DNA of 64,000 nucleotides from Sphingomonas endolithica. Lineage in GTDB: Bacteria; Pseudomonadota; Alphaproteobacteria; Sphingomonadales; Sphingomonadaceae. Location: assembly GCF_025231525.1 (NCBI RefSeq), contig NZ_CP103057.1, positions 1,629,001 to 1,693,000 on the forward strand, in the 5' to 3' direction. Below, piece by piece: positions 18,127 to 30,189 of the stretch. The notes beneath the pieces are model-generated. The model saw only the letters and a list, made by a program, of their open reading frames with translations. It made no database searches and was not told the origin of the DNA. The position numbers were made by a program, and so were the translations under genes. The first letter of the stretch is position 1. Every line of letters begins with the position of its first letter.

Positions 18127-19116
18127 TCAGGCTTGCCCACCGGCATAGATACTGTCGACGATCTCGGCGACCCGGACCAGATCATCGGCCGCGGGATCGA
18201 AGCGCTCCCCCGCCGCCAAGCGCATGGCCCAATCGGCCGCCGCGCGGCCGCCCCATTCCTCGTGATCGTTCGCCACTTCCGCAGTACCAGTGCCAGTGAA
18301 GCGCTCGGCACGAAAATCGTAGAACGACCCGTCAATATTGTTGAGGCTGGCGCCACCTTCGCTGCCGTAGAAGGAGGCCGCGATCACCGCAGCGCGGCCA
18401 GCGTGCAGCCGCCACGAACAGGCGAGCCTGACATCGACATCGCCGATCAGGAACTGTGCGCTGGCATAATCCTCGACCTTGTCCGCGCCGGGTGCCAGCC
18501 TGTCACCAGCCGCGAACAGATTGGCCGAGACCTTCGACACCGCGCCTTCGTCCGCCAGCCACAATGCCAGATCGATCAGGTGCACGCCGAGATCGATCAC
18601 GCAGCCGCCACCGGACAGCGCGCGATCGTAGAACCATGGTTTGTCCGGCCCGTAAGCGTTGTGGAATACCAGATCGATCGCGAACAGCTTGCCGATCGCG
18701 TTCGAGCGGACGAGATCCTTGATCCGCTGCATGCCGTTCGTTTGCCGGTACGACAGATCGACTGCGAGCAACCGGTCGGCCGCGCGCGCTGCCGCCACTA
18801 CCCCAGCGGTTTCGGCAGCGTTGCGGCCGAGTGGTTTCTGGCAGAACACGGCCGCCCCTGCCTCCAGCACCTGGATGGATTGCGCGGCATGCAGCGCGCT
18901 GGGCGTAGCGATGACGATACCGTCGAGGTTCAGCGCCAGCATCGCCTCCAGCGACTCCACGGCGACTGCATCGGGTGCCAGCGCTGCCGCATCGGCCAGG
19001 CCCTGCGGCGAGGGATCGCAGATCGCCGCTGCCTCGATCGCGCCGGTCGCCAGCATCGCGGCCATGCGGTGGCGCCCGATCCAGCCAGTGCCAAGGAAAC
19101 CGATGCGCGGCTTCAC
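18127..19116 (-). CDS. Gfo/Idh/MocA-family oxidoreductase
   Basis: A 329-residue NAD(P)-dependent sugar dehydrogenase-type protein. The N-terminal Rossmann fold starts IGFLGTGWIGRHRM (residues 5-18), the EKP-like motif appears as CQKPLGRN (about 92-99; usual Glu replaced by Gln), and the C-terminal substrate domain has GGGCVIDLGVHLIDLALW (about 170-187) with the catalytic-type Asp/His pair. Family members oxidise, reduce or isomerise sugars and sugar nucleotides. It is the last gene of the leftward operon: its GTG overlaps the stop of the dehydrogenase gene by 4 nt. It probably modifies a sugar for the same glycan. Confidence 0.9.
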   Translation of the reverse strand: MKPRIGFLGTGWIGRHRMAAMLATGAIEAAAICDPSPQGLADAAALAPDAVAVESLEAMLALNLDGIVIATPSALHAAQSIQVLEAGAAVFCQKPLGRNAAETAGVVAAARAADRLLAVDLSYRQTNGMQRIKDLVRSNAIGKLFAIDLVFHNAYGPDKPWFYDRALSGGGCVIDLGVHLIDLALWLADEGAVSKVSANLFAAGDRLAPGADKVEDYASAQFLIGDVDVRLACSWRLHAGRAAVIAASFYGSEGGASLNNIDGSFYDFRAERFTGTGTAEVANDHEEWGGRAAADWAMRLAAGERFDPAADDLVRVAEIVDSIYAGGQA

Positions 19117-20078
19117 GGGAACAGCACCAATGCCTTGACCATGTCGTCCGGCTTGTCGCGCGTCCCGTCCAAGGCAGCGCCGAGTTGGTCGAGCGGGAAG
19201 CGATGCGTGTAGAGCGGTCGCGGGTCGATCCGCCCGCTTGCCACCGCATCCACCGCCTCGCGCATGCCGCGCAGCGCGACCGCCGGATCACGCTCGTGCG
19301 CGTTGATCACATCGATGCCCTTCCAGTTCCACATCTGCATGTTTACCTGGCGCGGCCCGTCCTGATGATAGCCGGCCACGATCAGCTTGCCGCCTTCGCG
19401 CACGAGTTCACCGGCGAGGTCGAGCGGCCATTGCTTGCCCACCGCCTCGATCACGCGGTCGCACAAGGTGCCGCCGGTGAGCGCCTTGACCTGCTCGATG
19501 ATCGCGTAGTGATCGTTCATCGCGATCGTCTCGGCAGCGCCATACTCGCGCGCGAGCGCCAGCGACGATTCCCGCCGCGAGATGGCGATGATGCGCGCGC
19601 CGGCATCGGTGGCGAGCCTGGTCAGCACCGCGCCTAGGAAGCCGATCCCGACGATCGCCACGGTCTGGCCGGCGGTGATGTCGCTGCGGCGGAAGATGTT
19701 CATCGCGCAACCGAGCGGCTCGCCCGGAAACGGCTGCCCGGCAAGAGAGGCGGGCAGCCGCACGACGGCATCCGCCCGCGCGACATCGTATTCGGCGAAG
19801 CTCTTGTAAGACAGCGCCGCGACCCGGTCGCCCACCGCGAGGTCGGCAACATCGGGGCCCAGCGCTTCGATCACGCCCCAGCCTTCATGGCCGAGCCCGC
19901 CCGCGTCGCCGGGATAGTGGATCCATTCGTTGCCGGCCCATGGCTCCAGGCTCGAGGCGCATACGCCGCAACCTTCCAATTTGACCAGCACCTCGCCCGC
20001 CCCCGCTGTCGGCACCGCAACCCGGTCGATGCGGATCGTGCCGGGGGCTGCCAGGATCGCCGCCTGCATCTCGCTCAT
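19113..20078 (-). CDS. Medium-chain (zinc-type) alcohol dehydrogenase-like protein
   Basis: A 321-residue MDR-superfamily protein. The catalytic zinc region is present as GCGVCASSLEPW (about 36-47) and GHEGWG (about 63-68), and the NAD-binding fold as VAIVGIGFLGAVLTRLA (about 140-156). The four-Cys structural zinc loop of classical ADHs is absent. It may reduce or oxidise a sugar or sugar nucleotide in the pathway. Its ATG overlaps the stop of the glycosidase gene and its stop overlaps the next GTG, both by 4 nt. Confidence 0.88.
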   Translation of the reverse strand: MSEMQAAILAAPGTIRIDRVAVPTAGAGEVLVKLEGCGVCASSLEPWAGNEWIHYPGDAGGLGHEGWGVIEALGPDVADLAVGDRVAALSYKSFAEYDVARADAVVRLPASLAGQPFPGEPLGCAMNIFRRSDITAGQTVAIVGIGFLGAVLTRLATDAGARIIAISRRESSLALAREYGAAETIAMNDHYAIIEQVKALTGGTLCDRVIEAVGKQWPLDLAGELVREGGKLIVAGYHQDGPRQVNMQMWNWKGIDVINAHERDPAVALRGMREAVDAVASGRIDPRPLYTHRFPLDQLGAALDGTRDKPDDMVKALVLFP

Positions 20079-28135: not shown

Positions 28136-30189
28136 AGCTCGTCGTTCTCGGGCTCAGCCTTTCCTCGTCCTGGGGCAACGGCCACGCCACCACGTTCCGC
28201 GCGATACTGAAGGCGTATGCCGCGCGCGGACACGACATCTTGTTCCTGGAGCGCGACGTACCCTGGTATGCCGGGCATCGCGACCTGCCCGATCCCGCTT
28301 TCTGTCGACTGGAATATTATGCCGACCTGGCCGGGCTGGAGCAGTGGCGCGCAGAGATCGCCGGTGCCGATGCGGTGATCGTCGGCTCCTATGTGCCCGA
28401 TGGCGTGGCGGTGGGGCGTTATGCGCAGCAGCACGCGCGCGGCGTCACCGCCTTCTACGATATCGACACGCCTGTGACGCTCGCCAAGCTGGAGCGCGGC
28501 GACATGGAGTATCTCTCGCCCGAGATCATCCCGGGCTACGATGTCTATCTGTCGTTCACCGGCGGGCCGACGCTGGAGCGCCTCGAGCGGCAGTTCGGAT
28601 CGCCGGCAGCGCGCGCGCTGTATTGCTCGGTCGACGATACCGCATACCAGCCGCTCGATGTCGAAAAGCGTTGGGACCTGTCGTATCTCGGCACGTACAG
28701 CCCCGATCGCCAGCCGACGCTGGAACGGCTGCTGATCGAGCCGGCGCGCCGTGCGCCGCACCTGCGCTTTGTCGTCGCCGGGCCGCAATATCCCGGCGAC
28801 ATCGACTGGCCCGCCAATGTCGAGCGCATCGAGCATTTGCCCCCGGCCGAGCACGCCGCTTTCTATTCGGCCTCGCGCTTCACGTTGAACGTGACGCGGG
28901 CGGACATGATCGCGGCGGGCTGGTCGCCGTCCGTGCGGCTGTTCGAGGCGGCCGCCTGCGGCACGCCGATCATCTCCGACGATTGGGTCGGGCTCGATCA
29001 TTTGTTCGTGCCCGAACGCGAGATCGTCATTGCTGGGGGTGCCGACGACGTACTGCGCACGCTCGATCGCGACGCGGCGGCAATGGGCCATGCCGCCCGC
29101 ACCCGCGTGCTGGCCGAACATACCGCCACGCACCGCGCGGCGGAACTGGAACATCATCTTGAAGAGGCACGTATCAACAGAATGGAAGACAGTTTGATTC
29201 TGGTCACCGGCGGTGCCGGCTTTATCGGATCGCATTTGTGCGCGGCACTATTGGCACAGGGGCATCGGGTCGTCTGCCTGGACAATCTGCAGACCTGCCA
29301 CCCATCGAACCTCGATCGCCTGATCGGGCAGCCAGGGTTCGAATTCATCCGCGGCGACGTGGTCGATCCGCTGCCGGCGTCGATCGTCGATCGCACGCGC
29401 CACTTCACGCGCATCTACAATCTCGCCTGCGCGGCGTCCCCGCCTTTGTACCAGGTCGACCCCGAGCATACGATGCTGACCAACGTCGTCGGCAGCAGCC
29501 AGTTGTTACGCCTGGCCGAGGCGAGCGGCGCGCGCTTCCTGCAGACCTCCACCAGCGAGGTGTACGGCGACCCCGAAATCCACCCGCAGCGCGAGGATTA
29601 TCGCGGTGCCGTCAACTGCACCGGCCCGCGCGCCTGCTACGACGAGGGCAAGCGCGCGGCCGAGGCGCTGACGTTCGATTTCGCACGCACCGGCCGCGCC
29701 GACGTGCGCGTCGCACGCATCTTCAACACCTATGGCCCGAACATGCACCCGGATGACGGGCGCGTCGTCTCCAACCTGATCTGCCAGGCGCTGTCCGGGC
29801 AAGACGTGACGATCTATGGCGACGGCAGCCAGACGCGCAGCTTCTGCTACGTGTCCGATCTGGTCGCCGGGCTGATGACGCTGATGGAAAGCGACATCGA
29901 CGGAACGGAGCCGGTCAATCTCGGCAATCCGAACGAGCTTACCGTTAACGAATTGCTCGGCCACGTGCTGACGCTGACCGGATCCGATGCGGCCGTGGTC
30001 AACCTGCCGCTGCCGATCGACGATCCGCGGCGCCGCCGCCCGGACATTAGCCGCGCGCAGGAATTGCTCGGCTGGTCGCCAAAGGTGCCGCTGGCCGATG
30101 GCCTGGCGCTGACCTGCGCCTGGTTCGCGCAGGAAGTAGGGTCGGGAAGCGCAACTGGCGGCGAAGAGCTGAGCTGCGCGGCGGAGTAG
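28132..30189 (+). CDS. CgeB-like glycosyltransferase 3 fused to UDP-glucuronate decarboxylase
   Basis: A 685-residue two-domain protein. Residues 1-about 345 are a third CgeB-like GT-B enzyme (start MKLVVLGLSLSSSWGNGHAT; donor motif FEAAACGTP near 271). Residues about 351-685 are a UDP-glucuronate decarboxylase (UDP-xylose synthase): VTGGAGFIGSHL, DNLQTCHPSN, ACAASPPLYQ, STSEVYGD, GPRACYDEGKR with catalytic Tyr/Lys, and the final RRRPDISRAQ. It turns UDP-glucuronate to UDP-xylose, so the fused GT may use xylose or a derived pentose. An in-frame ATG at 29182 (residue 351) exactly precedes the second domain, so it could also be made alone. No stop or frameshift separates them. Last gene of the rightward operon. 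Confidence 0.9.
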   Translation: MKLVVLGLSLSSSWGNGHATTFRAILKAYAARGHDILFLERDVPWYAGHRDLPDPAFCRLEYYADLAGLEQWRAEIAGADAVIVGSYVPDGVAVGRYAQQHARGVTAFYDIDTPVTLAKLERGDMEYLSPEIIPGYDVYLSFTGGPTLERLERQFGSPAARALYCSVDDTAYQPLDVEKRWDLSYLGTYSPDRQPTLERLLIEPARRAPHLRFVVAGPQYPGDIDWPANVERIEHLPPAEHAAFYSASRFTLNVTRADMIAAGWSPSVRLFEAAACGTPIISDDWVGLDHLFVPEREIVIAGGADDVLRTLDRDAAAMGHAARTRVLAEHTATHRAAELEHHLEEARINRMEDSLILVTGGAGFIGSHLCAALLAQGHRVVCLDNLQTCHPSNLDRLIGQPGFEFIRGDVVDPLPASIVDRTRHFTRIYNLACAASPPLYQVDPEHTMLTNVVGSSQLLRLAEASGARFLQTSTSEVYGDPEIHPQREDYRGAVNCTGPRACYDEGKRAAEALTFDFARTGRADVRVARIFNTYGPNMHPDDGRVVSNLICQALSGQDVTIYGDGSQTRSFCYVSDLVAGLMTLMESDIDGTEPVNLGNPNELTVNELLGHVLTLTGSDAAVVNLPLPIDDPRRRRPDISRAQELLGWSPKVPLADGLALTCAWFAQEVGSGSATGGEELSCAAE

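What the first reader, a model, noticed from the sequence alone, without database searches (positions are those of the whole stretch)
18127..30189. Two divergent glycan operons with nine of nine 4-nt stop/start overlaps
All four junctions of the leftward operon (18127-22385) and all five of the rightward operon (22656-30189) are exact 4-nt overlaps (ATGA or GTGA). Such uniform coupling suggests fixed protein ratios and selection to stay together. Gene content combines two epimerases, GT4 and three CgeB-like transferases, a UDP-xylose synthase, a phosphatase, a CmoB-like methyltransferase, a glycosidase and two dehydrogenases. I know of no described pathway with this set. It plausibly makes a methylated pentose- and deoxysugar-containing surface glycan.
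Basis: partly seen in the sequence, partly recalled or inferred. Interest (0 to 1): 0.82.

Follow-up and report, generated by a model that had tools for sequence, protein, structure and literature searches.

The report
Stress-linked conserved glycan gene cluster
Two back-to-back gene sets that probably build an unknown sugar compound are kept together, with the same tight gene overlaps, in many related bacteria, and the DNA between them carries what looks like a general stress-response switch.

Summary
In detail: all nine junctions are exact 4-nt overlaps, against 26 of 186 codirectional pairs in a sample of the same genome. There are 11 ORFs: the third CgeB-like transferase and the UDP-xylose synthase are one frame. 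The cluster is conserved elsewhere: Sphingomonadales, Paracoccus, Aurantimonadaceae, Microvirga; the five rightward overlaps are kept in 75/84 to 87/89 loci.
New: (1) the intergenic carries an EcfG-type promoter, GGAAC-N16/17-[CT]GTT, in 46 of 78 regions (shuffled mean 0.3); a looser form, which the window has, in 67 of 78. (2) The window also has TTGAT-N4-ATCAA there, found at two places in its 4.09-Mb genome. (3) Inositol-3-phosphate synthase lies in or near 35 of 89 loci. (4) The glycosidase is a circular permutant of a GH39 (PslG-like) barrel; one relative carries it unpermuted, fused to the second epimerase. (5) A hydropathy scan shows no membrane segment, so 'surface glycan' is unsupported.
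Best reading: a general-stress-controlled cytoplasmic pathway for a xylose-containing, methylated glycoside, perhaps inositol-based. Product and regulation are untested.

The parts
18127..19116 (-). GFO: Gfo/Idh/MocA oxidoreductase
   Evidence: Pfam PF22725, PF01408; PDB relatives include several inositol dehydrogenases, none close
19113..20078 (-). ADH: zinc-type alcohol/polyol dehydrogenase family
   Evidence: PF00107, PF08240
20075..20992 (-). GH: circularly permuted GH39/PslG-like glycosidase; predicted catalytic Glu10 (NEP) and Glu112 (TEVG)
   Evidence: PF11790 weak; model; native and rotated profiles against PslG; unpermuted relative
20989..21792 (-). MT: SAM-dependent methyltransferase, TIGR04290
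   Evidence: 366.6 bits, cut-off 300
21789..22385 (-). HP: histidine phosphatase, TTG start
   Evidence: PF00300; relatives phosphoserine phosphatase, CobC, glucosyl-3-phosphoglycerate phosphatase
22386..22655 (.). Divergent intergenic region
   Evidence: alignment of relatives
22495..22519 (+). EcfG-type promoter, GGAAC-N16-CTTT
   Evidence: looser pattern chosen after seeing near misses
22555..22568 (.). Crp/FNR-type box TTGATGCAGATCAA
   Evidence: only exact one in the window, one of two places in the genome
22656..23771 (+). Ea: NAD-dependent NDP-sugar epimerase family
   Evidence: PF01370
23768..24850 (+). Eb: CDP-tyvelose 2-epimerase-like SDR
   Evidence: 1orr E 3.3e-80
24847..25947 (+). 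GT4 glycosyltransferase
   Evidence: PF13439, PF00534
25944..27050 (+). CgeB1: CgeB-like transferase
   Evidence: PF13524
27047..28135 (+). CgeB2: CgeB-like transferase
   Evidence: PF13524; 72-82% identical in 13 congeners
28132..30189 (+). CgeB3-UXS: CgeB-like transferase fused to UDP-glucuronate decarboxylase (UDP-xylose synthase)
   Evidence: PF13524 and PF01370 in one frame; human UXS1 E 1.9e-97; fused in 19 of 63 other loci

Best explanation
A conserved cytoplasmic glycoside-assembly pathway, run as two coupled operons from one stress promoter. Shown by sequence: gene order, overlaps and promoter motif are conserved, and the GH is a circular permutant. Inferred: when the general stress response frees the sigma factor EcfG, it transcribes the rightward operon, and in some species the leftward one too, from the same quasi-palindromic site; a Crp/FNR-type regulator adds a second input in some species. 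UXS makes UDP-xylose, which the fused or adjacent CgeB3 is likely to transfer; Ea and Eb make further epimerised NDP-sugars for GT4 and CgeB1/2; HP removes a phosphate from an early intermediate, possibly inositol-3-phosphate or a glycosyl-inositol phosphate; MT O-methylates; ADH and GFO oxidise and reduce a sugar or inositol carbon; the permuted GH trims or edits the chain. The product is most likely a small soluble, xylose-containing, methylated glycoside made for stress survival and not exported.
For: EcfG-type site in 46 of 78 divergent regions (shuffled mean 0.3, max 2), 67 of 78 with the looser pattern (mean 0.46, max 3), on both strands in 24. NepR in 21 of 21 carriers tested against 48 of 289 genomes of the class. 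UXS identity and its fusion to CgeB3 in the window and 19 of 63 loci. Ino1 in or near 35 of 89 loci, about 30 nt before HP in three further genomes, and present in 14 of 14 carriers against 12 of 23 cluster-free congeners. No membrane segment.
Against: The window's own site has CTTT, not CGTT, and the looser pattern was set after seeing near misses. The strict EcfG pattern is not enriched over the own genome: 34 against 115 for its reversed control. In the class sample TIGR04290 carriers have NepR in only 7 of 14 (others 41 of 275, p 0.003). The top EcfG genes of S. melonis Fr1 seen in PMC6599016 do not name the cluster, and 14 motifs from that table have no close match in the S. melonis AS2.3 locus. 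33 loci with GH and ADH in view have no Ino1; the window genome's Ino1 lies elsewhere beside a CDP-alcohol-phosphatidyltransferase-like ORF, and none of 11 Ino1 genes outside the cluster has an EcfG-type site upstream. GT9-like, DUF6165 and DUF1003 genes near 22, 15 and 25 loci could point to the envelope.
Confidence: 0.42

Rival explanations
1. The cluster makes part of a surface glycan (LPS side chain, capsule or exopolysaccharide), and export or ligation genes lie elsewhere in the genome.
For: Glycosyltransferases with NDP-sugar enzymes are typical of surface glycan loci; GT9-like and DUF6165 genes lie near 22 and 15 of 89 loci.
Against: No membrane protein in the cluster and no flippase, polymerase or exporter among its genes.
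Confidence: 0.28
2. The cluster glycosylates a protein (flagellin, S-layer or another target), as CgeB does for the Bacillus spore crust (recalled).
For: Three CgeB-like transferases in a row.
Against: No candidate acceptor protein is conserved in the cluster, and a cytoplasmic glycosidase and an Ino1 gene are not expected.
Confidence: 0.12
3. The overlaps are general genome compaction and carry no special meaning for protein ratios (a rival for the overlaps alone, not for the pathway).
For: -4 is already common between close pairs here, 26 of 71, and one leftward junction is -4 in only 1 of 53 other loci.
Against: Nine in a row is unlikely on that base, and the five rightward overlaps are kept at 89-98% of loci although proteins differ widely.
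Confidence: 0.35

Closest known systems
EcfG regulon of Sphingomonas melonis Fr1 (PMC6599016; passages and one section read)
   Same: Promoter form GGAAC-N16/17-NNTT; the passages list sites ending in CGTT, CTTT and CATT; overlapping genes in operons
   Different: The cluster is not named in the passages I saw; supplementary Table S1 could not be opened
PslG (GH39 glycosidase, PDB 4zn2)
   Same: Rotated GH profile aligns 26-281 with PslG 26-302, both catalytic motifs (NEP, TE) included
   Different: Circularly permuted; no predicted signal or membrane segment; sits in a different kind of cluster
Human UXS1, UDP-glucuronate decarboxylase (PDB 2b69)
   Same: Full-domain match, E 1.9e-97
   Different: Fused to a CgeB-like transferase
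CDP-tyvelose 2-epimerase (PDB 1orr)
   Same: Full-length match, E 3.3e-80
   Different: No tyvelose pathway in the cluster; substrate unknown
Mycothiol and methylglucose lipopolysaccharide pathways of actinobacteria (recalled)
   Same: Ino1 or GT4 with a phosphatase, methyltransferase and glycosidase; HP is distantly related to glucosyl-3-phosphoglycerate phosphatase
   Different: Their later enzymes were not found here; different sugars; Ino1 is not in the window's cluster

Membership tests
EcfG (general stress response) regulon | EcfG-type promoter upstream | tested here: met
   46 of 78 regions with [CT]GTT, 67 of 78 looser; the window only by the looser form, CTTT
EcfG (general stress response) regulon | Genome encodes the NepR/PhyR/EcfG switch | tested here: met
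   NepR in own genome and in 21 of 21 carriers tested (one match contains a stop); PhyR and EcfG themselves not searched
EcfG (general stress response) regulon | Expression lost without EcfG | not testable with these tools
   No expression data for this cluster seen
GH39 / PslG-like glycosidases | (beta/alpha)8 barrel with two catalytic Glu after strands 4 and 7 | tested here: met
   Model with eight strands, pTM 0.83; NEP and TE columns aligned with PslG
GH39 / PslG-like glycosidases | Canonical strand order | tested here: not met
   Order 4-8 then 1-3; a canonical relative exists in G590. Filed as a permuted relative, not a plain member
UDP-glucuronate decarboxylase | Full-length match to the enzyme | tested here: met
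   2b69, E 1.9e-97, residues 352-669
CDP-tyvelose 2-epimerase | Activity on a CDP-sugar | not testable with these tools
   Sequence match only
TIGR04290 methyltransferases | Score over the curated cut-off | tested here: met
   366.6 bits against 300
Wzx/Wzy or ABC-type surface polysaccharide cluster | Membrane flippase, polymerase or exporter in the cluster | tested here: not met
   No such Pfam family in the 11 ORFs and no membrane segment; such genes elsewhere in the genome were not searched

The most novel reading that the evidence does not exclude
Alphaproteobacteria make, as part of their general stress response, a new class of cytoplasmic inositol-headed oligosaccharide carrying xylose and methyl groups, built by two coupled operons read from one bidirectional EcfG site, with a naturally circularly permuted glycosidase as its editing enzyme.
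Probability: 0.2. Interest if true: 0.8.

Novelty: new variant of a known kind. Interest (0 to 1): 0.62.

Why it matters
About 40% of EcfG-dependent genes in S. melonis Fr1 had no specific function (PMC6599016, section 5 read). A conserved pathway with a stress-type promoter and a predictable sugar donor (UDP-xylose) gives a concrete metabolite to look for. The glycosidase, with permuted and unpermuted forms serving the same cluster in different species, is a clean natural case of circular permutation.
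Full report
Observation. The nine junctions were read directly and all are 4-nt overlaps. The set is 11 ORFs: leftward HP, MT, GH, ADH, GFO; rightward Ea, Eb, GT4, CgeB1, CgeB2 and CgeB3-UXS. The last is a single 685-aa frame, so the 'third CgeB' and the 'UDP-xylose synthase' are one protein. In 400 kb sampled from the same genome, 26 of 186 codirectional neighbours could start at -4 and the longest run was 2. My gene caller is simple: on the window it missed HP and chose a later start for CgeB1, so by its own rule it sees 7 of the 9 junctions, in runs of 3, 2 and 2. 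The excess is therefore real but smaller than 9 against 14% suggests.

Conservation. CgeB2 is in 14 of 61 genomes searched: own, 13 of 36 of the same genus, 0 of 24 others of the order. The layout of 94 loci shows, where the contig allows, HP divergent from Ea-Eb-GT4-CgeB1-CgeB2-CgeB3(-UXS), usually with MT and GH after HP, and ADH-GFO further on or on the other side. Carriers include Sphingomonas, Sphingobium, Novosphingobium, Croceibacterium, Sphingosinicella, Paracoccus, Antarcticirhabdus and Microvirga. Over 89 distinct loci (window not counted) the five rightward -4 overlaps are kept in 75 of 84 up to 87 of 89 cases. That count accepts a -4 start within 45 nt of the start inferred by homology, which leans upward. 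CgeB3 and UXS are fused in 19 of 63 loci and overlap by 4 nt in 22. A GH profile hits 15 of 299 genomes across the phylum; the nine near-full-length hits with E below 1e-150, own included, are all in the same class.

Promoter. The aligned intergenic regions share one conserved stretch, GGAAC..AAG..AAGAAG..(C/T)GTT, which has the form of the EcfG promoter. With GGAAC-N16/17-[CT]GTT, 46 of 78 regions have it on the Ea strand and 22 on the HP strand, against dinucleotide-shuffled means of 0.3 and maxima of 2; with CGTT alone, 16 and 2. The 78 are 77 of the 89 loci, those with both genes in divergent order and a gap under 1500 nt, plus the window. Adding CTTT and CATT, seen in near misses, the window's among them, gives 67 of 78 on the Ea strand and 25 on the HP strand, 24 on both (mononucleotide shuffles, mean 0.46, max 3). 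In L040 (Sphingomonas melonis AS2.3) the site is GGAACAAAGAAGAAGAAGCTTCGTT and its reverse complement also fits. In the window the looser pattern occurs three times on both strands of 64 kb: here, before the DUF892 gene, and at 56603. NepR is present in 21 of 21 carriers that I chose, thirteen of them Paracoccus (the L040 genome's match contains a stop), against 48 of 289 genomes sampled from the class (a short model that may miss some). Against this: the strict pattern is not enriched over the own genome (34 against 115 for its reversed control), and TIGR04290 carriers in the class sample have NepR in only 7 of 14, though that exceeds 41 of 275 (these carriers were not checked for the whole cluster).

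Second site. TTGATGCAGATCAA at 22555 is the only exact FNR-type box in the window and one of two places in the genome; the other overlaps the probable start of a GntR-like ORF (read by eye). 15 of 78 intergenics have the box. In ten of these, the window among them, it starts 60-64 nt after the EcfG-type site, in three 102-105 nt after it, and in two 113 and 163 nt after it; several of these species are close kin. It would lie downstream of an EcfG start site and so may act as a brake; this is inference. A Crp-like gene lies near 13 of 89 loci.

Enzymes. Eb matches CDP-tyvelose 2-epimerase (E 3.3e-80); UXS matches human UXS1 (E 1.9e-97); MT is TIGR04290; the CgeB-like proteins carry PF13524. 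A gene absent from the window's cluster but in or near 35 of 89 loci is inositol-3-phosphate synthase (M. tuberculosis 1gr0, E 3e-120, for the one representative tested): 17 lie between GH and ADH, 7 beyond GH with no ADH in view, 11 in other positions; 33 loci with GH and ADH in view have none. In three other genomes it stands about 30 nt before HP, measured between the matched stretches. All 14 cluster-bearing relatives have an Ino1 somewhere, against 12 of 23 cluster-free congeners (Fisher p 0.002, kinship not corrected). In the own genome it stands next to a CDP-alcohol-phosphatidyltransferase-like ORF (read by eye), and none of 11 Ino1 genes outside the cluster has an EcfG-type site upstream, so it may serve another pathway.

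Glycosidase. The GH begins at MIEAAMIWNEPNN, the strand-4 motif of GH39-type barrels. The model (pTM 0.83, mean pLDDT 77, low in places) has eight strands in an order that reads as 4-8 then 1-3. The native profile matches PslG only from PslG residue 133 (27.4 bits, E 1.8e-5); a rotated profile matches it from 26 to 302 (35.8 bits, E 4.8e-8), straight through the natural ends. In genome G590 the same cluster carries a GH in normal order fused to Eb; the native GH gives two segments in swapped order, the rotated one a single 279-column match at 31%, E 1e-29. At least 8000 relatives exist (candidate limit reached), and many of the 120 listed bear the name beta-xylosidase from their sources.

Reading. 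No cluster protein has a predicted membrane segment (hydropathy only), so I favour a soluble product. Shown: anatomy, conservation, motif, permutation. Inferred: EcfG control, donor sugars, order of steps, inositol head, role in stress survival. Papers: of PMC6599016 I saw passages and section 5; of all others only search listings.

Noticed in passing
13779-15980 (-): 733-aa fusion of a GH1-like domain and an RmlD-type dTDP-4-dehydrorhamnose reductase domain; a relative lies beside the cluster in L024. A second case of a glycosidase-like domain fused to a nucleotide-sugar enzyme.
   Followed up: partly
16274-16432 (+): Short N-terminal piece of a flavin-binding protein that looks like UDP-galactopyranose mutase, apparently a remnant (the name is by eye).
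   Followed up: no
30403-31875 (-): DUF892 (YciE-like) and manganese catalase genes beside the cluster; an exact EcfG-type site at 31015-31039 points at the DUF892 gene. DUF892 or Mn-catalase relatives also lie near some other loci.
   Followed up: partly
16898-17554 (+): ROS/MucR-type regulator between the GH1-RmlD gene and the leftward operon.
   Followed up: no
41376-44966 (-): 1196-aa hybrid histidine kinase with several PAS domains.
   Followed up: no
L173:9477-11594 (-): Unpermuted GH fused to the CDP-tyvelose-2-epimerase-like SDR inside an otherwise similar cluster.
   Followed up: yes
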